DNA of 64,000 nucleotides. Source: Gavia stellata (lineage: Eukaryota > Chordata > Aves > Gaviiformes > Gaviidae). Below, piece after piece: positions 1 to 48,709 of this stretch. The position numbers and the translations under genes are program-made. The stretch's first letter is position 1; each line of letters begins with the position of its first letter. The stretch is from assembly GCF_030936135.1 (NCBI RefSeq), contig NC_082635.1, positions 186,001-250,000 of the forward strand, given 5' to 3'. Below the pieces are notes generated by a model that did not search any database, was not told the DNA's origin, and was given only the letters and a program-made list of their open reading frames with translations.

Positions 1-477
1 GCAGGCGTGCGTGAAGCAGATGTGGGGCTCAAAGCTCCTGCCAAGAGTCTCGTGGACCCCGGAATCCCTAAACAGAATCTGCGGTGAGTTTTAATTCCCG
101 ATCCGGAGCTTTGTGCCCTGCGGCAAACGTCACCAGCGCCGGCTGAACATGTTGCTCAGGCGAACGTGGCCTCTGGGTCACGGCGCAGCGTCTCCTCAGG
201 CGCAAGAGGGAGCTGCGAGCTCGGGAGCGGGGAGAAGCGAGCTACGACGCTGCGGGGGATTGAAGAATAGCGCAAAATAACCAAGAGATTTTTTTCCTAT
301 TTTTTTTTCCCTCTGGTTATCTCACAATGAGTTTTCCTGCGGCTGGGATGGCACCGCTTAGCTGTTCCCTTCCAGTTCCCGCTTGCGCAGCACCCGCTGT
401 AATTCTCCGCGGGGGGCTTTTCCCACCCTTCCCGAGTCCGCAGGAAGACTCATCTCTCCGTTTTTCTCCCGTTTCAG
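1..477 (+). other. SAE1: SAE1 intron (upstream part)
   Basis: I find no coding exon here. The preceding SAE1 exons, which encode the first 70 residues in human including the nucleotide-binding Gly-rich motif, are not present and must lie before the window. The segment ends in a pyrimidine-rich tract and a CAG acceptor at 475-477. Confidence 0.7.
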
Positions 478-3400
478 GTTTCCCAAGAGGACACGCGAGC
501 TCAGTTCCTCATCCCCGTGGGTTCCTTGGGCCGCAACAGAGCCGAAGCCTCGCTGGAGCGGGCGCAGAACCTCAATCCCATGGTGGACGTGAAAGCTGAC
601 TCCGAGAGCGTGGAAAGCAAACCCGAAGAGTTCTTCACCCAGTTCGACGCAGTACGTGCGGCGGGGGGAGAGAAAGGTCGGAGGAGAAAGGGGCTTGCTG
701 ACTTCTTATTAAGTCTCCTCGCTAATTACTCTTATTCTGATTGCGTTAGCGCTGAGAGTGTCTATCCTTGAGCCGCGGGCAGCTGCCTGCCTGTTGTCGG
801 CGCGAGTTTTCCCCGCCGCGGTTACAGGTTGAGCTGCCTGACTCTTCAGAAATGGCATCTGTTCCCCTTCTGGTCTCCTCCGTGGGTCGCAACAGGCGGC
901 GGCTGCCTGCTGCCTGCTTTTTTCGGGTGTGATGGGGCTGGTAGTTGTAGGTACCGCAGCCGATGGCGGCTTCCCAATCCGGCCTTCTTGCCGGATGGTG
1001 AAAAATCCGGCGGCGGCTCTGAAAGCAAGGGGAGGAGGAACGCATCCAGGTCTTGTAGCTCCCGCGGATCGGCTGCCTGCCTCTGCCTGACTGCAGGGCG
1101 GCAGGCGCTGCCGAGGGGATCGTAAAGCGCTGATTACAATAACGCGGCCCTGCGGGGAGCTACCCCGGGGTACATATCCTGCTCCGCTCCCAGGCCCTGA
1201 GCTTTAGAAATAACCGTATTTAGCGTCGTTCCCCCAATTCCCACCAAAATTCTCCGGAAACGGGATGCTGTATCCCTTAACCTCCTAATTATGCCCGGAG
1301 CGGAGGCTGCTGGAATTAGCCCCTGTGAACGGGAGGGGAAAATTGATAATTACTCCCAGCGTTGTGCCCCGCTGTGAATGAAACGGCAACTCTTCCCCGC
1401 CGCCCCAGGAAAGGGGGGGAGATGTTACACCCCCCAATAACCCCGTGAGGAGGGAAGGAGGGGGGTAAACGTTCAAATTTCTGCCTGCAGGTCTGCCTAA
1501 CCTGCTGCTCCCGGGATGTTATGGTGAAGATCGACCAGATTTGCCACAAAAACAGCGTCAAGTTCTTCACCGGCGACGTTTTCGGCTACCACGGCTATAT
1601 GTTTGCCGACCTGGGGGAACACGAATTCGTGGAGTGAGTCGGGGAGGGCTGCGGTCTCGGGGAGCGGGTGGCGAGAGGAGAACCGGCCCCACAAGAAGGG
1701 TATCGGTGTTTCGGCTGCCTTCACCCCCTCGGAGAGGCTGCCTGTTTTTGGGACCCGGGAGATTTGAAGTCTTTTAAAAAGACTTTTTGCCGCTGAGCAG
1801 CGCGAGTGGGGATGGCGGTTTCTCAAAGCGAGCTCAGTTGGTGGTTTTTTGGGTTGTTTTTTTTCCCCCCCCCCGCCTCCGTAGAGAGAAAACCAAGGTC
1901 GCCAAAGTCAGCCCGGGTGTGGAAGATGGGCCGGACACCAAAAAAGCCAAACTCGACTCGTCGGAGACCACCATGGTGAAAAAGGTGAGTGGGATGGGGG
2001 GGGAAAAACCCACCCTGCAGAGACCTCCGAGACCTCTTGAGGGATGGGGCGAAATCTGCGCCGAAGCAAAAACCTTTTCACATTGAAACGCCTCCGGCCG
2101 GGGCATTGTTTTGGTTTCCCAGCTGGAAATTTAACGGAGGAGTGGAAATCCCCTCGACTTTAGCCGGCTACGAGGAGAATGCGAGCTGAGCCAGCAGATT
2201 AACGCCCTTTTGTGTCCCTTTTGCCCCCTCCCTCCCTCCACCTCGCTTTGAGGGTGCAGCTTCCCCTCGGAAGGTCTGGGAATATTCCCCGGATGCCGAT
2301 CGAACCAGCTGTCGCCCTCCCGCCGTTTGCGGGGGGGATGGCGATTCCGCGTTCGGATACGGCGAATTCCTCCGGATCCCTTTCTGAGATGCCACAGCCC
2401 GCGTGCCGAGGGAGGGCCGGGGCTCCGCCAAGCCTTTCCCTGGATGCGTGCGGGAGCAGGCGGGCTTCGCGTCGGGGAGACTTTCACACTCCCTCGTTTA
2501 ATACCTCCGTGGTTTGGAGCCGGTTTTCCCAAATACTCCAGAGTTCACGCACCGTAAACCCTCATCCCCTCCTAAACTGACGCTGAGGGCTATCGGCGTT
2601 ACCTTAAAAATCTTTTAATTAAGAGAGCGGGTCGTTTAGCCATCCTCCCGTCGGGTTAAGCTTTGCGGAGGCGTGCTCCCAAGGGTCTTTTGCGCCGGGA
2701 CGCCAAATCCCTGCATGACGATTTGGGCGATCCTGCTCTGCCTGGGGGAATAAAGACGATTATTTTCCCTTTGCCGCCACCCGGCTCTCCTCGTCCCCGC
2801 CGCCGTGCCCGGCTCCCCTTGCTGAGCTCAACGGGGATGGCGGCAGCGTCGGTGTCCCGGCCCTCGACGTCACCGCTCGCTCGCTGACCTCATCTCAAAA
2901 GACCTCGCGCCGTCGGGGGACCCGTCGGGCCGGGGCTGGGGGTATCGACGTTGGGTTGCCTTGCCAGGGGAAGGGAGCGCAACACACACGCCGTCTGCAA
3001 TTTGTGGGGGGCTTCTCCCTGGTGCCCCCCCAGACCACGCCAACGCCTTCTCTCCCCTCGCAGCGGGTGCTTTTCTGCCAGCTGAAGGAAGCCCTGGCCG
3101 TCGACTGGAGTGGGGAGAAGGCAAAGGCGGCGCTGAAACGCACCACGACGGATTATTTCCTCCTCCAAGGTAAGTCCCTGCCTCTCAATTCCCATTGCTT
3201 TTCCCTACTGGCATTGGGAAATTCGGCTTTGTCCCATCGCCAAACCGGGTGTGCGCTCTCCCAGATCTGCCGCGGCGGCGGCGAGCGAACGTGAGGCAAT
3301 TTCTGTGGTGAAAACCAGCTTTTGATTATTTTTATTGTCGGCTTTGAGGTTTGTTGGGGTTTTTTTTGTGAGTTTTACCGTAATAGCCAGGAGCTAAAAA

Positions 3401-5161
3401 TACCCGGGCGACTGGGAACAGCCTTCTCCCCGGTATGGAAGCGCCCTGCCGCACGGCTCAGGCCCTGGCCGCTCGTCCCTCTCCCTTGCCATGAGCTTTC
3501 AGGCTCTGGCGGCGGCTCGTGCCGAGGCATCCGGGGAAAGCCGAACCACCCTGGAACGTTTCAGAGCCCGGCTCTTCCCTCGGGAAGGAGCTGGGAGCGC
3601 TGGCCGGCCGCGCGAGCTTTCCCAAACCCGCTTTGCGGTCGCGCCGGCAGGTTGAAGGTTTGGCCAAGGAGCTCCTAAAAGAGAGACAGGGAGCTGCCGC
3701 TCCCCTCGGCTTCTCCCGAATTGCCGGCAGAGCCGCACGGCGAAGCTGCCGGCAGCCCCTCGGCTGCGTGGCGGCACCGGGGTGACTCTCTCTCTCCCTC
3801 TCCCTCTCCCAGTGCTGTTGAAGTTTCGGACGGATAACGGCCGGGATCCTTCACCCCAAAACTATGCCGAGGACTCGAAGCTGCTGCTCCAGATCTGCCG
3901 CGACGTCCTGGAGGCGCTGGGTGTCGGCGCCGACCTGCTGCCGGATGAATTCGTCAGGTGCGGCAGGGAGCCGAGCACATCACCGGCACCTCCTTAGCCA
4001 TTACTGCTCCTTTTCCGTTGGATCGCCGGGTGCCGGAGAAGCTCCGGCAGCTCCCGACGCCCGTTTTCACCATGAATCTCACCGGGAGGACGACGGCGGT
4101 GACCTGAACCGCCGCCTGCCCTGCGTGTCCTTGCTTTTCCTCCGGGTCACCGTCACCGGGGGATTAACAGCTCGGTGGAGCAGGTTCACCGCCTTCCCCA
4201 AGGCCGTTGGTGCCGTGGGCTTGACGCCGGGCCAGACGCCGCCTCGCTCCGCCAGCGTGATCCCGAGCAATCCCAGCCGGCTCCGCCGGGACCTTGGGAC
4301 CGCGGCGGTGTAGAGAAATCGCCCGTGTCCTCGCGGTGACACCAAACCCCGGTGTCAATCCCGGGAGGGTCCCCCTCACCCCCGGCGCGTTCACCGGGAA
4401 CTCCCCGTCCCTGCCTGCATGTTGCCACACGCTGCCCACCGGGAATGGCGGGAATGTGCCGCCGGAGGCGGCGGGGTGGGGGGGGACGCAACGCCGCGCC
4501 GGCATTTTGAGGGGTTTATTTTTAGCAGGGTGGCACGAAGCACGCAGGGGGGGACGCGCCGGTGTCGTGTCCCCGTCACCGCCGGCTCCTTTTGGGGGGA
4601 AACCTCGGTGTTTTAGCAAAACCCAGAAGCTTGGTTTTTTTGGGGGGGGAGCGCGGGGAACCGCGGCGTCTCCGGGCTTTGCCGTTGAATTTCTCTTCCT
4701 TCCCTCCAGCTACTGCTTCTCCGAGATGGCTCCCGTCTGCGCCGTGGTCGGAGGCGTCCTGGGCCAGGAGGTGGTCAAGGTAGCGGTCGTTTTGTTTTTT
4801 GGGGGGCGCGGCGGGTGCCACGATGGTTGCAGCGTGGGGGGGCTCTGCACAGCGCATGCTTCCCCCCCTCCTTGCCCCCCCAAAACCCCCTTCCCCACCG
4901 GTTGGGCGACCCCGGCCCCCCCATTTTGGGGGCGCTCCCCTCTAATAACCCCCCCCCAGATCCACATCTCCCAGCGCCGGGCTTTATTTTTTCGGCGGCG
5001 GGGTGAACCCCGATTCACCGGTAACCGAATTTGCCCCCCCTCCCCCTGTGTGTCCCCCCCCCCTCAGGCCCTCTCCCAGCGGGACCCCCCCCCACAACAA
5101 CTTCTTCTTCTTTGACGGCATCAAAGGCAGCGGGATCGTGGAGTGCCTGGGCCCCAGCTGA
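478..5161 (+). CDS. SAE1: SUMO-activating enzyme subunit 1 (5' partial, 7 exons)
   Basis: SAE1 (AOS1) pairs with UBA2 to form the nuclear E1 that adenylates SUMO; the catalytic cysteine sits in UBA2, so none is expected here. Exons: 478-651, 1491-1633, 1885-1984, 3064-3169, 3813-3957, 4710-4779, 5068-5161, all with GT/AG borders and matching phases. Recognisable stretches are GSLGRNRAEASLERAQNLNP, FTGDVFGYHGY, DGPDTKKAKLDSSETTMVKK and CFSEMAPVCAVVGG. The first exon here starts at the residue matching human Val71. The last exon has one C too many in the C run at 5085-5093: as read, it stops early at 5113-5115. With one C fewer the frame runs to the TGA at 5159-5161 and the total matches the human length of 346 residues exactly. 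I therefore treat the extra base as a likely assembly error. The next gene, BBC3, is convergent. Confidence 0.95.
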
Positions 5162-8281: not shown

Positions 8282-8287
8282 TTTATT
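8282..8287 (-). terminator. BBC3: BBC3 polyadenylation signal (AATAAA on minus)
   Basis: TTTATT on the plus strand reads AATAAA on the minus strand, about 415 bases after the BBC3 stop codon and next to the end of the 17-bp minisatellite. It defines a likely BBC3 3' UTR of roughly 8265-8702. Confidence 0.6.
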
Positions 8288-8702: not shown

Positions 8703-10965
8703 CTAGTTGGCTTCCCGCGCCGGCAAGGCGGCTGCCTGCAGGTTGTAGACGCCTCCCAGCAACTGCGAGACCAGGCGGTAGAGGTGACCCCAAAAAACGC
8801 CGCCGACGCCGCCCCGCTGCTGTCGAGGGGTCTTCATTAATGGGGGGGTGGGTTAATTAAGGGGTGTCTGTTTATTTTTTTGGGGGGGGGGGGTGTTTAG
8901 GGGGTCCCCCCCCCCGCCCTCACGCCGCCGCTGGCTCCCTGCCTTATAGACCCGCTGCTATTTATAGGCTGTGAGTCAGCGGCTGGCTCGCACGCGCGCG
9001 TGCAAACAAGCCGGCGGCTCCTTTTTTTATTTTTGGGGGGGGCCCTGCCCAATTTGGGGGTGCCCCCCACCAAATAACAGCCCCCCACCCCAAATAACAG
9101 CCCCCCCCTTCCCCGCAGCGAGCAAAGCAGGGGGGATAAGAGCGGGAATGGTGGGGATAACACTGAGAATAGGGGAGGGATGTGGGGTTTTGGGGTGCCC
9201 CCCCTCCAAAAGTGTCTCTAAGGAAGCCCCCGCCTCCAATTTGGGGGTGCCCCCCCCCAAATAACAGGCCCCCCCCCCCCAATAACAGCCCCCCCCCTTC
9301 CCCACAGCGAGCAAAGCAGGGGGGATAAGAGCGGGAATGGTGGGGATAACACTGAGAATAGGGGAGGGATGTGGGGTTTTGGGGTGCCCCCCCCCCAAAA
9401 GTGTCCCTAAGGAAGCCCCCGCCTCCAATTTGGGGGTGCCCCCCCCCAAAATAACAGGCCCCCCCTTCCCCACAGTGAGCAAAGCAGGGGGGATAAGAGC
9501 GGGAATGGTGGGGATAACACTGAGAATAGGGGAGGGATGTGGGGTTTTGGGGTGCCCCCCCCAAAAGTGTCCCTAAGGAAGCCCCTGCTTCCAATTTGGG
9601 GGTGCCCCCCCCCAAAATAACAGGCCCCCCCTTCCCCACAGTGAGCAAAGCAGGGGGGATAAGAGCGGGAATGGTGGGGATAACACTGAGAATAGGGGAG
9701 GGATGTGGGGTTTTGGGGTGCCCCCCCCCCCAAAGTGTCCCTAAGGAAGCCCCCACCTCCAATTTGGGGGTGCCCCCCTCCAGTTTGGGGGTGCCCCCCC
9801 CAAAATAACAGGCCCCCCCTTCCCCGCAGCGAGCAAAGCAGGGGGGATAAGAGTGGGAATGGTGGGGATAACACTGAGAATAGGGGAGGGATGTGGGGTT
9901 TTGGGGTGCCCCCCCTCCAAAAGTGTCCCTAAGGAAGCCCCCCCCTCCAATTTGGGGGTGCCTCCCTCCAATTTGGGGGTGCCCCCCTCCAATTTGCCGC
10001 CCCCCCCCCCCCCCAAATAACAGCCACCATCCCACCAGGGAGCGAAAAGCAGAGGGAGTAACACTGATAACAGTGGGAATAACACCGGGAAGGGGGGGAG
10101 TGCGGGATTTTGGGGTGCCCCCCCCAAAGTATCCCTGGGTGACCCCCCCCCAAATTTTGGGGTGCCCCCCCCCCTTACCTGCTGCTCGTAGGTCTGCTGG
10201 AAGGCGTCGCCCAGACGGCGCAGCCGGGCGCCCAGCTCCCGCTCCGGGCCGGGGGCTTCCCCGGGGAGACGGCCATTAGGGACGGCCCCCCCCCGGCTCC
10301 CCCCGCTTTGGGGGGGTCCCTCGTGGTCCCCGTCCTCCGTGGGGTGAAACTCGCCTGGAGTGGGAGTGGGAGAAGGGGGGGGGGGAGGTCAGGCTCCCCC
10401 CCCCCCAAGCAGCAGGGCAGGATACGGGGGCTCGTCAACAGGAAAGCCCAGAACAATTCCCAGCGCTTGGATTGGGGTGGGGGGGGCACAAGCAGCTGCC
10501 CCCCCCCCAAAAAAACACGCGTGGGAGTGGGGGGGGCATGCCCTGACTCCCTGCTTACCAAAAGAGGAGCAGGCAGCCAATGGGGACCCCCCCACAGGAG
10601 TACGAGGACACCCCCCCCCCCCCAACACGGGTATGGGGACCCCCCCACGGGTGCGGGGATCCCCACGGGGTGCGTGGACGCCCCCCCCCACCCGTGTCCA
10701 TCCCTCCCCCCCCACGGGACTCACCGTGGTGGGCGACGGCGGCTGCGGGGGGTCCCCGCGTCCCGCAGCGATAGAGGAGGAAGGCGGCGGGGGGGGGGGG
10801 AGCCCCGGGACAGGCGCAGCTCAGACGGGGGTGGCGGCGGGGGGGGGACACCGCCGGGGACACGGGGCCGGGCAGGGCCAGCGCCCCCCCCCCGCCGCAG
10901 GCAGGGGGGGCAGGCAGGGGGGCTGGAGGCTCGGCGAGGCTCCCTTCCCGCAGCGGTCTGGCCAT
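8703..10965 (-). CDS. BBC3: BCL2-binding component 3 (PUMA), BH3-only pro-apoptotic protein
   Basis: PUMA binds anti-apoptotic BCL2 family proteins at mitochondria through its BH3 helix and triggers BAX/BAK. Coding exons on the minus strand are 10965-10725, 10354-10179 and 8831-8703; the phases fit (241+176+129 = 546 nt, 181 residues; human has 193). The start MARPLREGSLAEPP resembles human MARARQEGSSPEPV, and the ATG has G at -3 and +4. The BH3 helix at residues 120-137, ELGARLRRLGDAFQQTYE, aligns with human EIGAQLRRMADDLNAQYE and keeps the invariant Leu125 and Asp130. The hydrophobic tail at 152-170 (FWGHLYRLVSQLLGG) matches the human WRVLYNLIMGLL region. The exon-2 acceptor is strong. The last-exon acceptor (AATGAAG/ACC) has a C-rich but weak tract and is the least certain border. 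The middle is Pro/Gly/Ala-rich, as in mammals. It lies between SAE1 and CCDC9 as in human. BMF or another BH3-only gene is less likely given both ends of the protein and the synteny. Confidence 0.9.
9040..9995. repeat. Tandem repeat of about 165-190 bp in BBC3 intron
   Basis: Five to six copies of a unit containing AATTTGGGGGTGCC, AATAACAG, GAGCAAAGCAGGGGGGATAA, GGTGGGGATAACACTGAGAA, GGGATGTGGGGTTTTGGGG and AAGTGTCCCTAAGGAAGCCC. Copies differ mainly in the length of their C runs. It fills most of the intron between the BH3 exon and the last exon of BBC3 and is open in several frames by chance. Confidence 0.95.
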
Positions 10966-10980
10966 CGCACCCGGGGGGCT
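10966..10980 (-). other. BBC3: BBC3 5' UTR segment of first coding exon
   Basis: Read on the minus strand, a pyrimidine tract ending in TCCCCGCAG abuts position 10980, leaving 15 untranslated bases before the ATG. This implies an upstream noncoding exon. The intron (10981-11692) holds only C/G homopolymers and an A-tract near 11065. Confidence 0.6.
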
Positions 10981-11692: not shown

Positions 11693-11785
11693 TGCAGCTG
11701 CATGAACCGTGCGGGGAGAGCGCTGCGATCGGCACCGGCACCGGCTCGGTCTGGCAGCGCGCGCCGCGCTGCCCGCTCTGGGCAA
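11693..11785 (-). other. BBC3: Probable BBC3 5' noncoding exon
   Basis: The minus strand has an excellent donor GCTGCA/GTGAGT with the exon ending at 11693, downstream of a GC-box and CRE promoter. The 5' limit is my estimate, because a transcription start cannot be read from sequence. It would join the acceptor at 10980. Confidence 0.5.
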
Positions 11786-11846
11786 GGCCCCGCCCCCTCC
11801 GTGACGTCACCGCCCCGCCCTCGCCCCGCCCCGCCCCGCCCCGCCC
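11786..11846 (-). promoter_or_regulatory. BBC3: BBC3 core promoter: GC boxes and CRE
   Basis: A perfect cAMP-response element TGACGTCA lies at 11802-11809. It is flanked by GC boxes (CCGCCCC repeats at 11811-11846 and CCCCGCCCC near 11788-11797). The region is CpG-dense, TATA-less and sits just upstream of the candidate BBC3 first exon. Confidence 0.65.
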
Positions 11847-11847
11847 C

Positions 11848-11867
11848 GGACAAGTTCGGGCTTGTGC
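11848..11867. promoter_or_regulatory. BBC3: Candidate p53 response element upstream of BBC3
   Basis: Two adjoining decamers, GGACAAGTTC and GGGCTTGTGC, fit the p53 consensus RRRCWWGYYY at 19 of 20 positions with zero spacer; the single mismatch is at position 9 of the second half. It lies about 155 bp upstream of the candidate first-exon donor. Mammalian BBC3 is a direct p53 target with a promoter-proximal site, so placement and quality agree. Confidence 0.75.
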
Positions 11868-13955: not shown

Positions 13956-14155
13956 NNNNNNNNNNNNNNNNNNNNNNNNNNNNNNNNNNNNNNNNNNNNN
14001 NNNNNNNNNNNNNNNNNNNNNNNNNNNNNNNNNNNNNNNNNNNNNNNNNNNNNNNNNNNNNNNNNNNNNNNNNNNNNNNNNNNNNNNNNNNNNNNNNNNN
14101 NNNNNNNNNNNNNNNNNNNNNNNNNNNNNNNNNNNNNNNNNNNNNNNNNNNNNNN
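13956..14155. other. Assembly gap of 200 N
   Basis: A run of 200 N, probably a placeholder of arbitrary size. It falls inside a CpG-rich segment between the two divergent genes, so promoter or first-exon sequence may be missing. Confidence 1.
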
Positions 14156-14156
14156 C

Positions 14157-14275
14157 GCCGCGCTCCCATTGGACGGAGACGCCTCCGCCGCAGCCAATCA
14201 GAGCCCGCGGCGGCGCTGTATCCAGCGGAGCGCGCGACCGTGCGGGAACCGGCGGGGCCGAGGGAGCAGCTATAG
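14157..14275. promoter_or_regulatory. Unassigned CpG island with two CCAAT boxes
   Basis: An ATTGG box and a CCAATCAG box in opposite orientations lie about 30 bases apart in CpG-dense DNA, directly beside the N gap. This is typical of a housekeeping or bidirectional promoter, but I find no gene to attach. It could serve an upstream exon of BBC3 or CCDC9, or an unrecognised transcript. Confidence 0.45.
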
Positions 14276-16795
14276 GTACCGGCTATAGGTACCGGCTATA
14301 GGTACCGGCTATAGGCACCGGCTATAGGTACCGGCTATAGGTACCGGCTGTAGGTACCGGCTGTAGGTACCGGCTATAGGCACCGGCCATGGGTGCATCT
14401 ATATGTACCGGCTATAGGTGCATCTATAGGCACCGGCTATAGGTACCGGCTATAGGTACCGGCTATAGGTGCATCTATATGTACCGGCTATAGGTGCATC
14501 TATAGGTGCCGGCTATAGGTACCGGCTATAGGTACCGGCTGTAGGTACCGGCTATAGGTGCATCTATATGTACCGGCTATAGGTGCATCTATAGGTACCG
14601 GCTGTAGGTACTGGCTATAGGTGCCGGCTATAGGTGCGGCTATAGGTACCGGCCATGGGTACCGGCTATAGGCACCGGCTATAGGCACCAGCCATGGGTG
14701 CATCTATATGTACCGGCTATAGGCGCCGGCTATAGGCGCCGGCTATAGGTACCGGCTGTAGGTACCGGCTGTAGGTGCCGGCTATAGGTACCGGCTATAG
14801 GCACCGGCTATAGGTACCGGCCATGGGTGCATCTATATGTACCGGCTATAGGTGCATCTATATGTACCGGCTATAGGTACCGGCCATGGGTGCATCTATA
14901 TGTAGCGGCTATAGGTGCATCTATAGGTACCGGCTATAGGTACCGGCCATGGGTACCGGCTATAGGTGCCGGCTATAGGTGCCGGCCATGGGTGCATCTA
15001 TATGTACTGGCTATAGGTGCATCTATAGGTACCGGCTATAGGTACCAGCTATAGGTACCAGCCATGGGTGCATCTCTAGGTGCTGGCCATGAGTTCCAGC
15101 CATGGCTGCATCTATAGGTACCGGCCATGGGTGCATCTATAGGTACCAGCTACAGGCGCTGGCCATGGGTACCGGCTATAGGTGCTGGCTATAGGTGCCA
15201 GCCATGGGTTCCAGCCATGGGTGCATCTATAAGTACCGGTTATAGGTACTGGCCATGGGTGCATCTATAGGTGCCAGCCATGGGTGCGTCTATAGGTACC
15301 GGCTATAGGTACCAGCCATGGGTGCGTCTATAGGTACCGGCTATAGGTACCGGCCATGGGTGAGTCTATAGGAACCAGCTACAGGTGCCGGCCATGGGTG
15401 CATCTATAGGTACCGGTTATAGGTACCGGCCATGGGTGCATCTATACGTGGCAGCTATAGGTACCGGCTACAGGTGCTGGCCATAGGTACCGGCCATGGG
15501 TGTGTCTATAGGTACCAGCTGCAGATGCCGGCCATGGGTGCTGGCCATGGGTGCATCTATAGGTACTGGCTATAGGTACCGGCCATGGGTGCATCTACAG
15601 GTGCCGGCCATGGGTGCGTCTATAGGTACCGGCTATAGGTACTGGCCATGGGTACTGGCTATGGGTGCGTCTATAGGTACCGGCCATGGGTACTGGCTAT
15701 GGGTGCATCTATAGGTACTGGCTATAGGTACTGGACATGTGTGCTGGCCATGGGTGCATCTTTAGGTATCGGCTATAGGTACTGGCTGTAGGTGCTGGGC
15801 ATGGGTGCGTCTTTAGGCACCGCCTATAGGTACCGGCTAAGGGTGCTGGCTAGGGGTGCCAGCCATAGGTACGGCCATGGGTAGCAGCTATAGGTAACAC
15901 CATAGGTACTAGCCATAGGTAACAGCTATGAGTGCATCTATAAGTACCGGCCATAGGTACCGGCCATTACCGGCCATAGGTACTGGCCATGAGTGCATCT
16001 ATAGGTACAGGCTATGGGTACAGGCTATAGGTACGGCCATGGGTACTGGCTATAGGTACGGCCATGGGTACTGGCTATGGGTACTGGCTATGGGTGCATC
16101 TATAGGTACTGGCCATAGGTACGGCTATGGGTACCGGCTATGGGTACCGCCCATAGGTAACGCTATGGGTGCTGGCTAGGGGTGTTGTCTATAGGTAATG
16201 CTATAGTTACTGGCCATAGGTACCAGCTATGGGTACAGCTGTAGATGCTGGCTATAGGTGCCGGCTATAGGTACTGCTATCGGTTCAGGCTATAGGTGCT
16301 GGCTACGGGTACCAGCTATGGGTGCATCGATAGGTAATGGCTATAGGTACTGCTATAGGTAACGCTATGGGTACACCCATGGGTACCGGCTATGGGTCCG
16401 GGCTAGGGGTCCGGCTATGGGTGCGGCTATAGGTACCGGCTATAGGTACATCCATAGGTACCGGTATAGGTGCCACTACAGGTGCGTCTATAGGCACCGC
16501 TATAAGCAGTGCTCTAGGAACAGCTATAGGTACGGCAATAGGTACATCCATAGGTATGGCTGTAGGTAGGGCTATGGGTGCTGCTATCGGTACCGCTGTA
16601 GGTGCATCTATAGGTACGTCTATAGGTACTGCTACGGCTGCAGCTATAGGTCTGGCTATAGGTACACCCCCAGGCACTGCCCTGGGTGCCGCTATAGGCA
16701 CGGCTGTAGGTACAGCCATAGGTCCGGCTATAGGCGCGGCTGGAGCTCCATCCCGCTATGGTCCGGCTATAGGTCCCGCTATAAGCTCCACTATA
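14268..16795. repeat. 2.5-kb array of a 13-bp unit (CGGCTATAGGTAC)
   Basis: Close to 190 copies of a 13-mer, CGGCTATAGGTAC, mixed with variants carrying GGCCATGGGT and GGTGCATCTATA. Copies are nearly identical at the left end and decay steadily to the right (from about 15,800 onward spacing and sequence drift), so homogenisation is polar. Each unit carries TATA and GGTACC motifs. Confidence 0.95.
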
Positions 16796-19348: not shown

Positions 19349-22300
19349 ATGGTGAGGCCCGGCCCGGGGGCCTCCGCTCCGGGCGGCGGGCTGGGGGAGA
19401 CCGGGCCCGCTCCGGGGGGCCGGGCTGGGGCTCCGGGGGGCCGGTGAGGGCGGCCAGGCCGGGCCGGGGCTCCGGGGGGCCGGTGAGGGCGGCCAGGCCG
19501 GGCTGAGGCTCCGGGGGACCGTGTGGGCCTTGTCGGGGGGCCGGGCCGGGGCTCCGGAGGGCAGAGTGAGGGCGGCCAGGCCGGGCTGGGCCTTGTCGGA
19601 GGCCGGGCCGGGGCTCCGGGGAGGCCGGTTGGGGCGGCCTGGCCTTGCCGGGGGGCCGGGCTGAGGCTCCGGGGGACCGTGTGGGCCTTGTCGGGGGGCC
19701 GGACCGGGGCTCCGGGGGGCCGGTGAGGGTGGCCAGGCCGGGCTGGGGCTCTGAGGCGGCCTGGCCTTGTCGGGGGGCCGGGCCGGGGCTCCGGAGGGCA
19801 GAGTGAGGGCGGCCAGGCCGGGCTGGGCCTTGTCGGAGGCCGGGCCGGGGCTCCGGGGAGGCCGGTTGGGGCGGCCTGGCCTTGCCGGGGGGCCGAACCG
19901 GGGCTCCGGGGGGCCGGTGAGGGCGGCCAGGCCGGTCTGGGCCTTGTCGGGAGCTGGGCCGGGGCTCCGGGGAGGCCGGTTGGGGCGGCCTGGCCTTGCC
20001 GGGGGGCCGGGCTGAGGCTCCGGGGGACCGTGTGGGCCTTGTCGGGGGGCCGGACCGGGGCTCCGGGGGGCCGGTGAGGGTGGCCAGGCCGGGCTGGGGC
20101 TCTGAGGCGGCCTGGCCTTGTCGGGGGCCCGGGCCGGGGCTCCGGAGGGCAGAGTGAGGGCGGCCAGGCCGGGCTGGGCCTTGTCGGAGGCCGGGCCGGG
20201 GCTCCGGGGAGGCCGGTTGGGGCGGCCTGGCCTTGCCGGGGGGCCGGGCTGGGGCTCCGGGGGGCCGGTGAGGGCGGCCAGGCCGGGCTGAGGCTCCGGG
20301 GGACCGTAAGGGCCTTGTCGGGGGGCCGGACCGGGGCTCCGGAGGGCAGAGTGAGGGCGGCCAGGCCGGGCTGGGGCTCTGGGGCGGCCTGACCTTGCCG
20401 GGGGGCCGGGCTGGGGCGCCGGGGAGAGCGGCTGGGCCTTGCTGGAAGGCCAGCCTGGGTCTCTGGAGGCCCGGCTGGGGCGGCCTGACCTTACCGGGGG
20501 ACCGGGCTGGGGTTCCAGCGGACCGGTGAGGGCGGTCTGGCCAGGCTGGGGCTCCGGAGAACCGGCCGGGCCTTGCCAGGAGGCAAGCCCGGGGTTCTGG
20601 AGGGGTGGCTGGGGCGGCCTGACCTCGCTGGGGGGCCGGGCTGGAGCTCTGGGAGGCCGCTATGGGGCTGACGTGACCAGGCCGGGGCTGCGGAGGGCCG
20701 GTCCCCGCTCTCACCCCTCTCCCCCCCACCCTCAGTCGGCCGCGCTGGATCTGAGATCGAAGGAGGAGAAGGACGCGGAGCTGGACAAGCGCATCGAGGC
20801 GCTGCGCAAGAAGAACGAGGCCCTCATCAAACGTTATCAGGTGCGGGGGGCTCGGCCCCGTGGCCCCCCCCGGCCTGCGTGGAGGCAGGGAAGGCGCTTA
20901 CAGCCCCTAATCCTCTGCCTGCAGCGGCTTAACGCCGGGTGGGGGGGGTTTAACCTCATACGGGGTCACAGGAGGGTGTTGGGGGGGATTGTCCTGTCCA
21001 AAATCCACGAGGGGACGCGATGGAGGGGCGGGGGGGTTTGTCCCCGCTCACGCCCGTATCCCGGTGGCAGGAGATTGAGGAGGATCGGAAGAAAGCGGAG
21101 CAGGAGGGGATCGCGGTGACGGCTCTGCGCCGGGCACGGCCCCCCGATGCCGAACCTGAGAGGAGATGGGTGGACAAGGATCTCTCCGTCACTGTCCAGG
21201 TCATGCTCTCCCCCGGGGTGAGTGGGGGGAGTTGGGGTTCAGGGGACTATCCGTGGGGTTCAGGGCAAGGTGGGGGTCCCTTGGGAGTCTTGCTGAACCC
21301 CCCCCGTCTCCTTCCCTCCAGGAGAAGCGCGTGGTGAAGGACAAGAAGCCATCCGGCACCCCTAAACCCGTCCGCGGCGCCGCTCCCCGCGGCTCGGGGC
21401 GCGCTGGCCTGCGTCCCTCCGGCCGTTCCCCGCGGGGGGGAACACCCCGTCGACACGTTTTGGGAGGGGGGCGACGACGCGGCTCCGGGAGAGCGCAGCG
21501 GCCGGGGCCGGCGCTCGCGGGGTCGGGGAGTGGCTGGCCCGGTGATGGGAGGCGACGCCGGCCCCGACCGAAAGTCCAAGGTGGGTGTTTTGGGGGCCGG
21601 GTGGGTGTTTTGGGGGCCGGGTGGGTTCACCCCACGCCCTAGGGGTGCGGGGAGGGGCGTTACCGGCCAGTTTGGGGGTGCTGCCTGCCCCCGGCGGCAG
21701 CTGGTTTCTCCTCGCCAGGAGTGGGAAGAGCGACGGCGGCAGAACATCGAGAAGATGAACGAGGAGATGGCGAAGATCGCGGAGTACGAGAGGAACCAGC
21801 GGGTGAGGAGGGAGAGGGGATCGGGGGGAGGTCGGTCGGTCGCGAGTGTCCCCCCCATGGGTGGCAACGTCCCCCTTTTCCCCCCCCAAACCCCGACTCA
21901 GGACGGGCTTCATGAAAAGAATCCGGTGCGCAACTTCTTGGACGACCCGCGCCGCAGCGGCCCCTTCCAGGACGCCGATCGCAAGGAGGGGAGCCGGCGG
22001 CACGTCCGAAACTGGGGGGGAGCCGATTTCGACAAGGTCAAGGCCGGGATGGAACGCGAGAAGACCTGGCAGGGCCCCGTACGTACCCCGGTGGGTCCCC
22101 CCACCTCCTGCCCCACGTTTTTTCGGGGTCCCGGGATGGACATCGGGTGGAGTTTGAGTAGTTGGGACAGGGCTTGAGCCGTGTCTCGCCACAGGGACGT
22201 CGTTCCAGCCCGAAAACTGGGGGGCCACTGGACATGACGCTCTCCATGACGGGTCGGGAACGAGCCGAATACGTCCGCTGGAAGAAGGAACGGGAACAGA

Positions 22301-26862: not shown

Positions 26863-26900
26863 TAACAGAGTGTGGTTTCTAGGTTGGGAGCTGGTGGAGG

Positions 26901-27953
26901 ATGGACTTCTCGATGCCCAATTATACCTACAATTACTCCATCTGGGACGACTATTCCGTATATGATATCGATGGCTATGAAGTCCCTCACAGCTACCGCG
27001 CCGTCCTGGCGCTCTACGCCCTCATCTTCCTCCTGGGCGTCTTGGGCAACGGAGCCGTCATCTGGGTGACCGGCTTCGAGCTGCGGCGCACGGTGAACGG
27101 TGTCTGGTTCCTCAACCTCTCCGTGGCTGACCTCCTCTGCTGCCTGGCCTTGCCTTTCCTGGCCCTGCCGCTGGCCCGTGACCACCACTGGCCCTTGGGT
27201 CACTTTGCCTGCAAGCTGCTGCCCTCCCTCACCATCCTCAACATGTTTGCCAGCGTCCTCCTCCTGATGGCCATCAGCGCCGACCGTTGCGCCATGGTGA
27301 CGCGGCCGGTGTGGTGCCAAAACCACCGGACCCTGGGACTGGCCCGGGGGGCTTGCGCGGCCGCCTGGTTCCTGGCCGGGCTCCTCACCCTCCCCTCCTT
27401 CATCTTCCGTACCACCCGTTCCGACATCTTCTCCGAGAAGACGACCTGCGTCCTGGACTACACGGCCGTGGGGCGCCACCAGCACCTCACCGAGCTCGTC
27501 ACGGCCGTCACCCGCTTCATCTGCGGCTTCTTGGTTCCCTTCGTGGTGATCACGGCTTGCTACAGCCTGCTGCTGGCTCGTGTCCACAGCAAGGGCTTTG
27601 CCCGTTCCCAGAAAGCCATCAAGCTCATCTTGGTGGTCATCATCAGCTTCTTCGTGTGTTGGCTGCCCTACCACATCGTGGGGTTGATCCTGGCCTCCAC
27701 CCATCCTCACAGCGACTTGTTCAAGGGCGCTCTGGATGCTGACCCCATCGTGGCCGGCGTTGCCTACATCAACAGCTGCATCAACCCCATCATCTACGTC
27801 ATCATGGGCCAGGACTTCAAGGAGAAGTTCCAGCGTTCCTGGAGAGCCGTGCTGCGGGGCGTGCTGAGCGATGACCCCACCAGCACCATGGGGGACAGCA
27901 GGATGAAGACCAAGTCCACCATGGATGACCACAGTGCCAGCACCACGGTGTGA
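26901..27953 (+). CDS. C5AR1: C5a anaphylatoxin chemotactic receptor 1
   Basis: Class A GPCR for complement C5a at the plasma membrane of myeloid cells, coupling to Gi. It has 350 residues, the same as human, in one coding exon (exon starts at 26883 after TTTCTAG). The N-terminus has six Tyr in the first 26 residues with acidic neighbours (sulfation candidates) and two N-glycosylation sequons at Asn7 and Asn11. Seven hydrophobic segments are visible; key motifs are LLGVLGN (TM1), NLSVADLLCCLALP (TM2), SADRC at the TM3 end, CWLPYH (TM6) and NPIIY (TM7), followed by a Ser/Thr-rich tail. Human C5AR1 has DRF where this has DRC, but the large extracellular loop of C3AR1 is absent, and synteny between CCDC9 and DHX34 supports C5AR1. 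Confidence 0.95.
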   Translation: MDFSMPNYTYNYSIWDDYSVYDIDGYEVPHSYRAVLALYALIFLLGVLGNGAVIWVTGFELRRTVNGVWFLNLSVADLLCCLALPFLALPLARDHHWPLGHFACKLLPSLTILNMFASVLLLMAISADRCAMVTRPVWCQNHRTLGLARGACAAAWFLAGLLTLPSFIFRTTRSDIFSEKTTCVLDYTAVGRHQHLTELVTAVTRFICGFLVPFVVITACYSLLLARVHSKGFARSQKAIKLILVVIISFFVCWLPYHIVGLILASTHPHSDLFKGALDADPIVAGVAYINSCINPIIYVIMGQDFKEKFQRSWRAVLRGVLSDDPTSTMGDSRMKTKSTMDDHSASTTV

Positions 27954-32560: not shown

Positions 32561-35500
32561 ATGCCGCTGGAGAAGGAGAGCAGATCCCGGCGGCGAGAGC
32601 GGGATCTTTCACCTTCCCGATGGGATTGGGACTGCCCCGTCACGCGGCGCCGGCTGGAAGAGCTGTATTTCCGCGAGCAGGATTACATCAGAGCCGACTC
32701 CGAGGATGTCTCCAACTTCTGGGCTTTCTTCGAGCGGCTCCGGCGTTTCCAGAGCCGGAGAACCGAGCGCGAGCCAACCCCCAGCCGCCGCGACCAAGCA
32801 GAGCCCTCCGCCGCCGCCTGCCGCCTCGACCTGCCCCGCCGATACGACCTCCGGTACCGCATCAACCTCTCGGTGCTGAGCGCCGACGTGGAAGGAGCGA
32901 TCCGAGGCCGGCGAGGAGACTCCGGCGTTCCCCAGGAATGCCTCTCCGAATTCCGCACCGCTTTGCTGCACTACCTGGACTTCACCCAAAAACAAAGCTT
33001 CGCCAAACTGGCCAAACTCCACCGGGAACGAGCGGCGCTTCCCATCTCCCAATACCGGGACCGGCTCCTGCGCGCCGTGGCTCAAAACCAAGTGGTGGTG
33101 ATCGCCGGCGATACCGGCTGCGGTAAATCCACGCAGGTACCTCAATTCTTGCTGGCGGCCGGTTACAGCCACGTGGCTTGTACCCAACCTCGCCGCATCG
33201 CCTGCATCTCGCTGGCCAAACGAGTAGGCTTCGAGAGCCTGCACCAGTACGGAAACCAGGTGAGCTCCGTGGGCTGGTGACCGGCGATTTCCCTGGCCGG
33301 TTTAGGGGTAACTGGGAGCCGTTGAGCACCGCTGGTTTCTTCCCACCCTGCTACTGGGTGCTACTGGGTGAAGGAAAGGGTTGTAGTGAACTGGGCTACA
33401 TCTGGCTGGCGGCCGGTCGCCAGCGCTGTTCCTCAGGGCTCAAATTTCGGGCCGATCCTGTTCAAAAAATATTAAAAATATCAATATAAAAAAAATAATT
33501 GATATTTTAATCAATGGAAATTGGCTGATGATACTGGACTGGGAGGTACTGTTGACTTTCTGGAAGGACAAGAGGTCCCGGCTGCATCCGGGGAGGTTCA
33601 GACTGGATTTTAGGAAACATTTCTTTACCGAGAGGGCGGTCAGACACCTCGAGGGGCTTCCTCGGGGTGTTGGTGCCCCACGCCTGTCGGCGTTTAAGGG
33701 AAAAATACCTTTAATAATATGCTTTAGCTTTTGGTCAGCCCTGAACCGGTCGGGCAGTTGGAGTAGATGATCATTGTGGTTCCTTCCAACTGAAATATTC
33801 TATTTTATTCCTTTTTATTCTCTTCTACTCTTCCTCTCTCTGCCACAGGTGGGCTACCAGATCCGCTTCGAGAGCACCCGCTCGCCTGCCACCAAGATCG
33901 TCTTCCTGACGGAGGGGCTGCTGCTGCGGCAGGTGCAGCGGGAGCCGACGCTGCCCGGGTACCACGTCCTGATCGCCGACGAGGTTCACGAGCGGCATCT
34001 GCACAGCGATTTCCTCCTGGGGGTCCTGCGGCGGCTCCTTCCCGCTCGGCCGGACCTTAAGTTGGTGCTGATGTCGGCGACCATCAACATCCGCCTTTTT
34101 TCGGGGTACTTTGGGGGCGCTCCGGTGCTGCAGGTGCCGGGAAGGATCTTTCCCATCTCGGTGAGGACGGAGGGTGATTTTTGGGATGAATCCCGGCACG
34201 GGGCGGGCGCGAATCTCCCCCTGCGTCTACCTGGAGGCAGCGTCCTCCCTGTCTCTGCTTCCGCAGGTCATTTACCAACCCATCCCTAAGGAAGAAGCAT
34301 CCACGGTCGGGAAATCGGGGAAATCGGAGCGCCTGGATCCCCTCCCGTACCTGCGGGTGCTGCAAGCCATCGACCACAAGTACCCGCCGGAGGAACGCGG
34401 GGACCTGCTGGTGTTCCTGAGCGGGGTGGCCGAAATCGGTGCGGTGCTGGAGGCGGCGCAGGCTTATGCCGCGCGCACCCAGCGCTGGATTGTGCTCCCT
34501 CTCCACAGCACCCTCTCTGTCGCAGAGCAGGACAAGGTGGGTGAGGGCCTGACCATGAGATCGGGGTGGGATTCGGCACCCTGGCGTCGCACAGCGAAGA
34601 ATCCCAGAGCTCAGCCCGGCTGCGCCCCGATTGTGGGTGCTTTTGGGGCGCGACCGATGGGTGCAGCCTGTATTTACCTTCTCCCTGCTCTGGGGACGGC
34701 CATGCTGACGTAGGACCGTGGTTTCTCCTTCCTCAGGTGTTTGACGTGCCCCCTCCCGGCGTCCGTAAGTGCATCCTCTCCACCAACATCGCGGAGACCT
34801 CGGTGACGATCGACGGCGTGCGCTTTGTCCTGGATTCTGGTAAAAATCCCCGCTCCGACGCCCCTCTCCGCTGGGTGGGAAAAGCTTCTCCCTTCCTCCC
34901 GCCCTGCCCTGAGCTTCTCCTTCCCTCCTGCTCTCTCCAGGGAAGGTGAAGGAGATGAGCTACGACCCTCAGGGCAAACTTCAGCGGCTGCAGGAGTTCT
35001 GGATCAGCCGGGCGAGCGCCGAGCAGAGGAAAGGACGTGCTGGCAGGACTGGCCCCGGCGTCTGCTACCGGCTCTACGCCGAATCCGACTACGACGCCTT
35101 TTCCCCCTATCCCGTGCCGGAGATCCAGCGGGTAGCGCTTGACGCTCTGGTGCTCCAGGTAAAGTTGGGGTTCCCTCTGCTCACGTTGGGGTTTCCTCAG
35201 GGGAGATTTGGGGAGGAAACGCAGCCAGCCAAGCGTGAGAGCAGGCTGCGGCTGAGGTGTCGGGGTGCGTTGGCTCTTGGGGGGCGCTTCGTAAACCTCC
35301 AGGCTCTTCCCGTCGTCGCTGGGCTCGTTCTACGTGTGCTTCTCTCTCAGTTAAAGAGCATGGGGCTGGGCGACCCCCGGACCTTCCCTTTCCTGGAGCC
35401 GCCTCCCTCGTCCAGCCTGGAGACGGCCGTGCGGTACCTGAGGGACCAGGGAGCCCTGGACGAGGCTGAAGACCTGACGCCCATCGGGAACCTTCTGGCT

Positions 35501-38474
35501 CAGCTGCCGGTGGACGTGGTGGTCGGTGAGTAATTCGGGGCACTCCCTGACGCGCAACGGAGTGGGGGGGGCTGTTTTCCCTGCCTTCACTGCCCTGCCC
35601 TCACCACGCAGGCAAGATGCTGGTCCTGGGCACACTTTTTGGACTGGCCGAGCCCACCCTGACCGTGGCGGCTGCGCTGAGCGTGCAGTCCCCTTTCCTG
35701 CGACCCGCTCACCCCAACCCCGACTGCGCCACGGCCCGACGGCCCCTGGAGAGCCCCCACGGCGACCCCCTGACGCTGCTCAATGTCTTCAACGAGTGGG
35801 TCCAGGTGGGATTTCTGCCTCGGGAAGGGAGATGAGACACATTTAGGGTTTGGGGAGACTCTGTTTTGGGGTGGGGTGTGCTTGAGTCCATGTGGGAGGC
35901 TGCTGGGAGGTGGTGGGGGCTGATTTTGGGGTGCGGGGAGCAGTGGGAAGGACAACCCGTCCCTGCCGGGGGCTGAGCCGTGCTGTCCCGGAGCAGGTGA
36001 AATCGGAGCGGAGCGGCAGCTCTCGGAAATGGTGCCGGCGCCGAGGCTTGGAGGAACATCGGCTTTACGAGGCCGCCAACCTGCGGCGCCAGTTTCAGGT
36101 GAGGTGGGACAGGATCCGGCCTCGGGGTGGGGTTTGTCTTTGGGCCGGGGAGGTCGTTGCTGGTGCGGAGGAGAGCTGAATTTGCCTGCGTGCCCCCAAC
36201 CTGCCCATCTCCCGGCTGCGGGGGCTCAGCAACCCTCTCCCCACCACCCCAGGAGCTTCTCCGAGACCACCAGCTGCTGGAGGAAGCCTCCAGCCAGCCC
36301 AGCGACAGCTACAGCCGACAGAGCCGACACCGGCAACGCCGCGAGCTGCACCGGCTGTGGCGTTCCCACGCGGAGACGGAGGGTCGGAAGCGCAAGGTGC
36401 TGCGGCTGCAGGACGGAGCGGACGCCTCCTCCGGCGAGGAGGAGGACGGTGGCGGCACCCGTGGGAAGGGGGAGCGCAGCATCGATATCCAGGTGACCCT
36501 CGCATCCGTCTCCTCTCCGGGGAGGCAGGATCCGGCCAGCCGGGCCCCTGACGCCCTCTCTTATCTCTGCAGGATGTCAAGTTCAAGCTCCGCCACAACA
36601 TGGAGGAGCTCCAGGCCGTATCCAGCTCAGCCCTCTCCTCCTCTCAGCTCGCCCTGCTCAAGCTGGTGCTGTGCAGGGGGCTTTACCCCCAGCTGGCCGT
36701 GCCCGACCAGCTCAACAGCGGCCGCAAGGACTCCGATCAGGTCCGTGTCCTCCCCTTGCCCTGTCCCCTACCCCGGCAGCCCCTCGCTCTCCCTCAACGC
36801 TCGTTTTGCTCTTGCTGCAGATTTTTCACACCAAAAACAAGCAGGGTGTCGTGCTTCATCCCACCTGCGTCTTCGCTACCAGCCCGGAGCTGCTCCATGC
36901 CAAGGAGGGACCGGAACGCGGTGGGACCAAAGGTGGGACAACCCCAATCCTGAAGGAACTGGCTCTGCTTCTCCCTGGCTTTTTCCCTGCCGGGTGAAAG
37001 CGCTGCTGGCCTCGGGGTTTGGCAAATCTCAGGCACTGGGGATGGGGAGAGGTTTGGGGTTCAGCTGAGACCCCCCCTTATTGTCCCTGCAGAGCCCACG
37101 GAGGGGCTGAGCCGCCGCCACCAGCTCCTCGCCTTTGTCTCGTTGCTGGAGACCAACAAGCCCTACCTGGTGAACTGTGTCCGGGTACCAGCCCTACAGG
37201 TGAGCTCTTCGCTCCCCTCCTCTTCCTCTCCATGCCCTCCGATAGCCTTCGTCACCCCAAACCGGTTGCGTTTCGCTCCTCCAGGCTCTCCTGCTCTTCT
37301 CCCGTTCGCTGGACACCAGCGCGGACTGCGCCCGGCTGGTAGCGGACGGATGGCTGGAGCTCACCGTCCCCGATTCGGACTCTGCCCTGCGCCTCCTCTC
37401 CACAGCCCTGCAGCTTCGTGCCGCTTGGGAAAAACTCCTCCACCAGCTGTTGGAAGGTCGGGGCGAGGAGTCGGGCCGCCGGCCGAGCTCCCGGGACGTA
37501 TCCGTGCTTACCCGCGGGCTGCTGGAATTCCTGCAGATGGAGGTGACGTGGCCGCGACCGCGGTGCGGGTGGTTTTAATCCATCTCCGGCGCCTTGCATC
37601 GGGTTGAAGGCTGAGAAAGGAGGATGAGGGGAGCTGGTGCAGCCCCCCCGACACCCTCGCGTCCCCTTGCAGGTGCCGTACCGCCTGCGCCAGCTCACCG
37701 GGCTGGAGAAGCAGAACCTCTACATCGGTCCCCAAACTGTGGCTGCCGCTCCCCGGCTCCCGGGGCTCTTCCAGGGGACGGAGATGAAGCCCGACGAGGT
37801 GAAAGGCGGCCACAGGGTGACCGACTTTCTCACCTACAACTGTCTGGCCGTGAGTACAGCCCTCTCCCGCCCTTCCTGCTCTGCCTGCCGCCCCCCCGGG
37901 GGAGTCTGAGCATCCCCTCCGCCCTTCGTATCCCGCAGACGGACACGGACCTCTACAGCGACTGCTTGCGGAGCTTCTGGACGTGTCCCCACTGCGATCT
38001 CCACATGCCCTTCACCCCCCTGGAGCGCATGTGCCATGAAAATGCTTGCCGGCCCTCCGAGGGTGAGTATTCCCCCCCGCCGAAGGGGCTGTGACAAGGG
38101 ACAAGCGGGGACAGCCAGCCTGGATTTTCCCCGGGGGGGGGAACCCAGGTGGTATCTCTGCTCCGTGGGCGACCGAGGAGAGAGGCGGCAGTGAGCTGGG
38201 CTGGGTTTGTGCCGGATTTTAGGAGCACCCCTCGAGATGCCACCGATGGCCACATTTTGGGGGGCAACGGGGGGAAGAAAAAGGTCTTGCGGGGTTTTGG
38301 TTTCCTTCTGATCCCCGTTTTTCTTTGTCTTTTCCTGCAGCCCCCTTGGAAGAAGAATCCGAAAGCTCGTCCAAAACCTCCGCCCTCCACAGATCCTACC
38401 ACTGCGACGTCTGCCAGCAGGATTTCACCTTCACCCCCACGGAGATCCTTCGGCACAAGAAGCAGCACCGGTGA
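32561..38474 (+). CDS. DHX34: DExH-box RNA helicase DHX34 (16 coding exons)
   Basis: DHX34 promotes nonsense-mediated mRNA decay by aiding UPF1 phosphorylation. Exons: 32561-33259, 33849-34160, 34267-34536, 34737-34839, 34941-35158, 35351-35525, 35612-35805, 35997-36098, 36253-36492, 36573-36740, 36821-36932, 37093-37199, 37285-37542, 37673-37849, 37939-38062, 38341-38474. All phases fit (3393 nt, 1130 residues; human 1143). Helicase motifs: Walker [10 protein letters not shown] at 183-191, DEVH at 277-280, SAT at 309-311 and [10 protein letters not shown] at 490-499. The rest matches human closely ([17 protein letters not shown]). The C-terminus has two Cys-X2-Cys zinc-finger-like modules (TCPHC and CDVCQQDF). 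The ATG at 32561 gives [10 protein letters not shown]; an upstream in-frame ATG at 32390 lies before the acceptor and is not used. Each exon is short and GC-rich with compact introns except intron 1. Confidence 0.96.
33395..33835 (+). mobile_element. CR1 LINE 3' fragment in DHX34 intron
   Basis: It contains CR1-like GGCTGGCGGCCGGTCGCCAG and CTCAGGGCTCA, an internal deletion or degenerate AT patch near 33465-33510, then GGAGGTTCAGACTGGATTTT, AGGAAACATTTCTTTACCGA and the 3' terminus GTTGGAGTAGATGATCATTG with TTCCTTCCAACTGAAATATT followed by an ATTCT-type tail. The tail merges with the pyrimidine tract of the next exon's acceptor. Confidence 0.85.
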
Positions 38475-47930: not shown

Positions 47931-47935
47931 TGTCC

Positions 47936-48705: not shown

Positions 48706-48709
48706 CAAA

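What the first reader, a model, noticed from the sequence alone, without database searches (positions are those of the whole stretch)
8703..10965. Intact avian BBC3/PUMA embedded in minisatellites
All three coding exons, the BH3 helix, the hydrophobic tail and the MARxxxEGS start are present with matching phases (181 codons), between SAE1 and CCDC9 as in human. From memory, PUMA is poorly represented or considered missing in bird annotations; the flanking C/G homopolymers and a 165-190 bp intronic repeat would explain that. The BH3 core reads LRRLGD, closer to the general BH3 consensus than human LRRMAD.
Basis: partly seen in the sequence, partly recalled or inferred. Interest (0 to 1): 0.9.

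Follow-up and report, generated by a model that had tools for sequence, protein, structure and literature searches.

The report
Bird PUMA cell-death gene, intact copy
This stretch of bird DNA holds an apparently intact copy of PUMA (BBC3), a gene that lets the tumour suppressor p53 trigger cell death; databases already hold the same gene in many birds, mostly under other names, although one paper says chickens may lack it.

Summary
On the minus strand at 10965-8703, between SAE1 and CCDC9, lies a spliced, uninterrupted frame that is the bird orthologue of BBC3/PUMA. Protein searches find it in 20 named bird species, five turtles and three lizards. Only 5 of the 20 birds call it 'bcl-2-binding component 3'; the other 15 have names such as 'SFPQ-like', 'formin-like' or 'uncharacterized'. 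The chicken entry is 'LGE1-like', although one paper says chicken 'may not have PUMA'.

Additions: a p53-element-like site with one mismatch at 11848-11867, upstream of exon 1; an overlapping upstream ORF; and BH3 as the most conserved segment.

So PUMA is not missing from birds. Most entries are misnamed, and GC-rich homopolymers and intron repeats probably explain why. The gene is an ordinary orthologue of a known family. Expression, p53 response and killing were not tested. The species is unresolved.

The parts
11848..11867 (-). p53 response-element-like site GCACAAGCCC GAACTTGTCC, no spacer, one mismatch to RRRCWWGYYY x2
   Evidence: about 0.11 sites with <=1 mismatch expected per 64 kb in a first-order Markov model of the window (3 Mb simulated, so rough)
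11802..11809 (.). CRE-like palindrome TGACGTCA, the only one in the window
   Evidence: function not tested
11693..11800 (-). non-coding exon 1 (5' end unknown, 11800 is nominal); donor TGCA|GTGAGT; upstream ATG at 11703 opens a 56-codon out-of-frame ORF overlapping the main start
   Evidence: bird protein models P0004, P0005, P0019, P0147, P0148 read through the same exon1-exon2 junction (by eye)
10725..10980 (-). exon 2; ATG at 10965; start MARPLREGS; contains G10, C9 and C12 runs
10179..10354 (-). exon 3; BH3 motif (residues 117-139, about 10247-10179)
9049..9992 (.). tandem repeat of period about 166-189 inside intron 3
   Evidence: containment checked
8703..8819 (-). coding part of exon 4: hydrophobic tail, TAG at 8705-8703.
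8282..8287 (-). AATAAA polyadenylation signal, about 430 nt after the stop
472..4782 (+). neighbour SAE1 (pieces at about 472-654 and 4708-4782 matched), tail to tail with BBC3
   Evidence: 5.6e-24; 8.2e-07
20736..22102 (+). neighbour CCDC9 (first coding exons), head to head with BBC3
   Evidence: tblastn of P0010; PF15266 DUF4594 19.9 bits, below its cut-off of 27; that this domain marks CCDC9 is recalled

Best explanation
This is the intact bird orthologue of BBC3/PUMA, a BH3-only member of the BCL-2 network. Most likely mechanism: stress-activated p53 binds the element at 11848-11867 and switches the gene on. The 177-residue (or 176/181), mostly disordered protein reaches the mitochondrial outer membrane by its C-terminal hydrophobic helix. 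Its BH3 helix (ERELGARLRRLGDAFQQTYEQQ) fills the groove of BCL-XL, MCL1 and relatives, which frees or activates BAX/BAK and starts apoptosis. Shown here: gene structure, intact frame, orthology, synteny, BH3 conservation, predicted helices in an orthologue, and a p53-site match. Inferred from the mammalian family: transcription, p53 control, membrane targeting, groove binding and killing.
For: (1) The spliced protein finds 21 proteins at E<=1. The 17 best have E from 1.3e-78 to 3.4e-17; all named hits are birds, and two are unnamed. The profile search adds five turtles, two of them named BBC3, and three lizards. (2) Emydura P0144 passes the Pfam PUMA cut-off (29.4 against 26.4 bits), tying the sauropsid family to PUMA. 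(3) SAE1 and CCDC9 flank it; the human order is recalled. (4) BH3 is the most conserved region: mean identity to the window 0.83 over 16 rows, against 0.49-0.71 elsewhere. (5) By eye, the frame agrees with orthologues on both sides of the long homopolymers. (6) p53-like element with one mismatch; the human PUMA element has three. (7) AlphaFold2 of the Accipiter orthologue gives helices at 130-158 (BH3 part, pLDDT about 90) and 161-185 (tail, about 75-81) in an otherwise low-confidence chain.
Against: The window protein stays below the Pfam PUMA cut-off (20.1 bits for 181 residues; 16.8 for 177). Only 6 of 17 alignment members match that model at E<=1. In one search, Dromaius and Nyctibius (both named BBC3) and the two lizards had no PUMA match at E<=1. 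No mammalian PUMA is among the 36 profile hits (only 7993 candidates were scored). Human PUMA peptides match the profile at E about 1. The best PDB hit of the single sequence is an unrelated 2S albumin at E=0.37. No RNA evidence was available. One p53-like site could be chance, and I saw it by eye before testing it.
Confidence: 0.92

Rival explanations
1. A silent or decaying copy: the orthologue is present but no longer expressed or functional in this bird.
For: No expression data. Passerine orthologues have an altered tail, so constraint may be relaxed in parts of the bird tree. Repeat-rich dot chromosomes lose genes (PMC12954441); that this locus is on one was not shown.
Against: Start, splice sites, BH3, tail, stop and AATAAA are intact, and BH3 is conserved from Dromaius to passerines.
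Confidence: 0.04
2. The frame is real only in this assembly: homopolymer lengths are miscalled and the true frame differs.
For: Coding runs of C12, G10 and C9. Models of Tyto, Aquila, Agelaius, Podargus and Catharus, and one of the Harpia models, leave the PUMA frame in part (by eye).
Against: The window's frame matches orthologues before and after the long runs, and 13 of 20 named bird species give a continuous start-BH3-tail model.
Confidence: 0.03
3. A different BH3-only gene (BMF- or BIM-like) or a chance GC-rich frame.
For: Weak Pfam matches to BMF (P0144, P0149, P0151, P0009) and Bclx_interact. Many long chance frames exist in this window.
Against: Whole-length orthology with proteins named BBC3, the SAE1-CCDC9 position, and an Emydura PUMA match above its cut-off.
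Confidence: 0.01

Closest known systems
BBC3/PUMA of turtles (Emydura P0144, Carettochelys P0146) and birds (Nyctibius P0006, Larus P0007, Anas P0015)
   Same: Whole-length alignment; start of the MARPLREGS/MARPLQEGS kind (Larus reads MASEGS); [LI]G[AV][RQ]LRR[LM]GDAF BH3; tail with a conserved W and a YN or YD motif.
   Different: Tail sequence GHLYRLVSQLLGGVYNLQAAALPAREAN; turtle BH3 has M for L (LRRMGD).
Human BBC3/PUMA (PDB peptides 5uul_B, 6tqp_B, 2roc_B, 2m04_B)
   Same: 10 of 21 BH3 residues identical, including LRR, D and YE. Coding exon phases 1 and 0 and the MARxxxEGS start match as recalled.
   Different: Human LRRMADDL against LRRLGDAF; human p53 element has 3 deviations from consensus, this one 1; no direct full-length match to a mammalian protein was obtained.
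BIM BH3 (PDB 1pq1_B)
   Same: LRRIGDEFNETY resembles LRRLGDAFQQTY.
   Different: The similarity is limited to BH3 and weak (E=1.6).

Membership tests
BBC3/PUMA | Pfam PUMA (PF15826) above its curated cut-off in this protein | tested here: not met
   20.1 bits (181 residues) or 16.8 bits (177 residues) against 26.4; collinear match to profile 81-176. Named BBC3 orthologues of birds miss it too (Anas 23.1; Dromaius and Nyctibius none at E<=1); turtle Emydura passes (29.4).
BBC3/PUMA | Whole-length orthology to proteins named bcl-2-binding component 3 | tested here: met
   Nyctibius 71%, Larus 72%, Dromaius 55%, Anas 46% identity over 97-100%; Phaenicophaeus 57% over 73%.
BBC3/PUMA | BH3 motif Lxxx[GA]D | tested here: met
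   LRRLGDAF; readable in 19 of 20 named bird species (the exception is Catharus P0152, whose model loses the frame).
BBC3/PUMA | C-terminal hydrophobic mitochondrial-targeting tail | tested here: inconclusive
   Hydrophobic tail present (best 15-residue hydropathy 1.06); helix predicted in the Accipiter orthologue. Targeting itself not testable.
BBC3/PUMA | Locus between SAE1 and CCDC9 | tested here: met
   human order recalled.
BBC3/PUMA | p53 response element in the promoter | tested here: inconclusive
   One-mismatch site at 11848-11867; binding not testable; conservation in other birds not tested (no bird genomes reachable).
BBC3/PUMA | Binds anti-apoptotic BCL-2 proteins and kills cells through BAX/BAK | not testable with these tools
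   needs bench work

The most novel reading that the evidence does not exclude
Birds of all three deep lineages (ratite, fowl, neoavian) keep a p53-inducible PUMA, including chicken, which has been said perhaps to lack it. It has escaped notice because it lies in a repeat-rich, homopolymer-rich, dot-chromosome-like block and is annotated under unrelated names. Its output may be tuned by a conserved overlapping upstream ORF, and passerines have rebuilt the mitochondrial tail.
Probability: 0.5. Interest if true: 0.5.

Novelty: new member of a known kind. Interest (0 to 1): 0.4.

Why it matters
At least one study of bird neuron death reasoned that chicken may not have PUMA (PMC6034111, passage). 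A gene model with exon borders, a candidate p53 site and a list of misnamed orthologues makes p53-to-PUMA signalling in birds directly testable. It also shows that loss claims for genes in such GC-rich blocks need a check by synteny and by short-motif search.

Tried and rejected
TPRQ is in 0 of 20 bird models and the 8819 version equals Larus, but the models vary in length and sequence here, and a TTAAC plus C-rich tract before the AAG could serve it (sequence). Rejected: an open frame as evidence in itself (183 long frames). Rejected: 'exon stuttering' as in PMC12954441. Apart from the exons themselves, the best match of any BBC3 exon in the window is 36.2 bits, far away (output limited to 6000 characters, matches of all four exons shown); their threshold was 42.1 bits under their own settings. 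The intron-3 array is at most their 'intronic' kind.

Led nowhere: Rfam (no match at the gathering score in the window). The genome search on the window's own genome did not complete three times. A C5AR1 tree of 34 rows (33 chosen by hand from the 120 listed of 896 hits, plus the window) did not place the species (highest identity Aquila, 92%).

Papers: nine searches on bird BBC3/PUMA or its neighbours and one on the p53 element, in a library that lacks most subscription journals. In their listings I saw no paper that describes a bird BBC3. Listings were capped: 25 of 72 papers, 15 of 47, and 15 of 13,469, whose terms were too loose to be useful. Six exact phrases such as 'chicken BBC3' and 'avian PUMA' gave 0 papers. 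Passages only were seen of PMC6034111, PMC12896748, PMC7199394 and PMC10426914. The locus's gene symbols as searched were absent from the main texts of PMC4290089, PMC8449477 and PMC12954441. Supplements could not be read, so gene lists there are unchecked. The remaining listed papers were seen as listings only.

Full report
What was checked. An open frame is weak evidence here: 8-12 kb is 62-75% G+C, and the window has 183 stop-to-stop frames of at least 120 residues. The case therefore rests on homology, synteny and structure.

Homology. The 177-residue protein found 21 proteins at E<=1 in 5.77 billion sequences, the best at 1.3e-78. A profile of the window and 16 of these rows (A2) found 36 at E<=0.1 (only the 7993 candidates sharing most words were scored). 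Those 36 rows comprise 22 from 20 named bird species, five from turtles, three from lizards and six without a name (P0018, P0020, P0153-P0156). The birds are Accipiter, Harpia, Aquila, Tyto, Nyctibius, Larus, Chlamydotis, Dromaius, Patagioenas, Phaenicophaeus, Anas, Gallus, Podargus and seven passerines (Chamaea, Poecile, Taeniopygia, Haemorhous, Camarhynchus, Agelaius, Catharus). Five of the 20 are named bcl-2-binding component 3 (Nyctibius, Larus, Dromaius '-like', Phaenicophaeus, Anas). The other 15 bear unrelated or uninformative names. The chicken entry is 'transcriptional regulatory protein LGE1-like'; its C-terminal part is BH3 plus tail, while its N-terminal part does not match.

How intact the orthologues are. 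By a pattern count, 13 of the 20 named species have a model with a start of the MA type, BH3 and tail. BH3 is readable in 19 of 20; Catharus is the exception. By eye, the Tyto, Aquila and Agelaius models start in exon 1 in another frame, Podargus and one Harpia model also leave the frame, and Patagioenas is fused to CCDC9 exons.

Link to PUMA proper. The window protein scores below the Pfam PUMA cut-off of 26.4 bits: 20.1 as 181 residues and 16.8 as 177. Six of 17 alignment members match that model at E<=1. In one search, Emydura passes (29.4); Chelonia (26.2), Anas (23.1) and Carettochelys (22.8) fall short; Dromaius, Nyctibius, Podarcis and Gekko have no PUMA match at E<=1. Human PUMA peptides are the only PDB hits of the profile, at E about 1. 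The single sequence's best PDB hit is an unrelated 2S albumin at 0.37. No named mammalian protein is among the 36 hits. Membership thus rests on the chain bird - turtle - PUMA, on position and on BH3, not on a direct strong match to human.

Gene model. Bird models P0004, P0005, P0019, P0147 and P0148 read through an exon 1-exon 2 junction (by eye). In the window it corresponds to a donor after 11693 (TGCA|GTGAGT) and an exon start at 10980. Joining those gives an upstream frame MQLQAPRVRWPDRCGKGAS, nearly the Aquila N-terminus. With exon 4 at 8819, introns are 712, 370 and 1359 nt, and an AATAAA lies at 8287-8282. The four-exon layout with one non-coding exon is what I recall for human PUMA-alpha. 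The upstream ATG at 11703 opens a 56-codon out-of-frame ORF that overlaps the main start. A similar upstream start appears in the Aquila, Tyto and Agelaius models, so it may regulate translation; this is untested.

Exon-4 acceptor. After the BH3 exon, the window reads TPRQQRGGVGGV from 8831, QRGGVGGV from 8819, or RGGVGGV from 8816. Of 20 bird models none has TPRQ; Larus has QRGGVGGV and Tyto QRGGVAV. Accipiter has two isoforms differing by one Q, as a NAGNAG acceptor would give. The evidence favours 8819 without closing the matter; junction reads would.

Promoter. A p53 element-like site with one mismatch and no spacer, first seen by eye, lies at 11848-11867. A first-order model of the window expects about 0.11 such sites per 64 kb, or 0.0005 per 300 bp (rough). 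At up to two mismatches the window has 2, this one included, against 2.08 expected, so the weaker class is noise. With spacers of 0-13 bases, 21 pairs of half-sites reach two mismatches or fewer, and this is the only one with one. The published human PUMA element, CTGCAAGTCCTGACTTGTCC, has three deviations from consensus (PMC10426914, passages); 14 of 20 bases agree with the window's site. A TGACGTCA palindrome at 11802-11809 is the only one in the window.

Constraint and fold. Mean identity of 16 rows to the window, gaps counted as differences: residues 1-20, 0.71; 21-80, 0.49; 81-116, 0.65; BH3 117-139, 0.83; tail 140-177, 0.64. AlphaFold2 of the Accipiter orthologue, with 20 other homologues, has mean pLDDT 58 and helices only at 130-158 and 161-185, as expected for a disordered BH3-only protein.

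Surroundings. SAE1 pieces lie at about 472-654 and 4708-4782. CCDC9 first exons lie from 20736 on (DUF4594 at 19.9 bits is below its cut-off). An intact C5AR1 frame lies at 26883-27953. An ORF at 34913-35533 has an HA2_N domain; I take it to be DHX34 by recall of the human order. Minisatellites lie downstream (5.4-8.2 kb), within intron 3 (9.05-9.99 kb) and upstream (12.1-12.8 kb and beyond). This resembles the 'sequence stuttering' of dot-chromosome genes in PMC12954441 (section 7 part 1 and Discussion part 1 seen), without copies of exon edges. That this gene lies on a dot chromosome was not shown.

What is known. [quoted passage not shown] The paper searches listed in Tried and rejected showed no paper describing a bird BBC3, but NCBI-sourced names already give it in five birds. 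The finding is therefore a real, intact gene of a known kind. Its value is a refined model, a candidate p53 site, and a misnaming problem laid open that conceals PUMA in birds.

Noticed in passing
P0021 (Gallus, XP_015128536.2 'LGE1-like'): The chicken protein under this unrelated name carries the PUMA BH3 (LGARLRRLGDAF) and tail, against the printed remark that chicken may not have PUMA.
   Followed up: partly
P0011, P0013, P0014, P0016, P0017 (passerines): Passerine tails mostly read (F/L)RWVAPW(L/I)G..PAAPLAARGGN (P0013 is shorter) instead of YRLVSQLLGAVYNLQ, and BH3 reads LR(L/V)LGD: a possible lineage-specific remodelling of the membrane tail.
   Followed up: partly
window 11703 (- strand), exon 1 into exon 2: Upstream ATG opening a 56-codon ORF that overlaps the PUMA start out of frame; similar starts in Aquila, Tyto and Agelaius models.
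   Followed up: partly
window 8831-8816 (- strand) and bird models: The start of exon 4 varies in length and sequence between bird models, from RRGL in zebra finch to QRERQRGGVGGV in Chlamydotis.
   Followed up: partly
P0010 (Patagioenas): A predicted protein fuses CCDC9 N-terminal exons to BBC3 exons 3-4. In the window these genes are on opposite strands, so that model or assembly is probably wrong, or the local order differs in pigeon.
   Followed up: no
P0154, P0155, P0020: Frames that read from the BH3 exon into intron 3 run into differing repeat units (P0154 and P0155 share the exon but soon diverge in the intron), as expected if intron 3 varies between individuals or assemblies.
   Followed up: no
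window 26883-27953 +: Intact single-exon C5AR1 frame, 92% identical to Aquila; found in many birds.
   Followed up: yes
window 13956-14155: A run of 200 N, the only gap in the window, beside a 2.4-kb array of a 13-base unit (14269-16665).
   Followed up: no
window 47837-48745 and 56037-56775: A minisatellite that is stop-free on both strands, and a low-complexity, apparently pyrimidine-rich tract, both seen only as translations.
   Followed up: no
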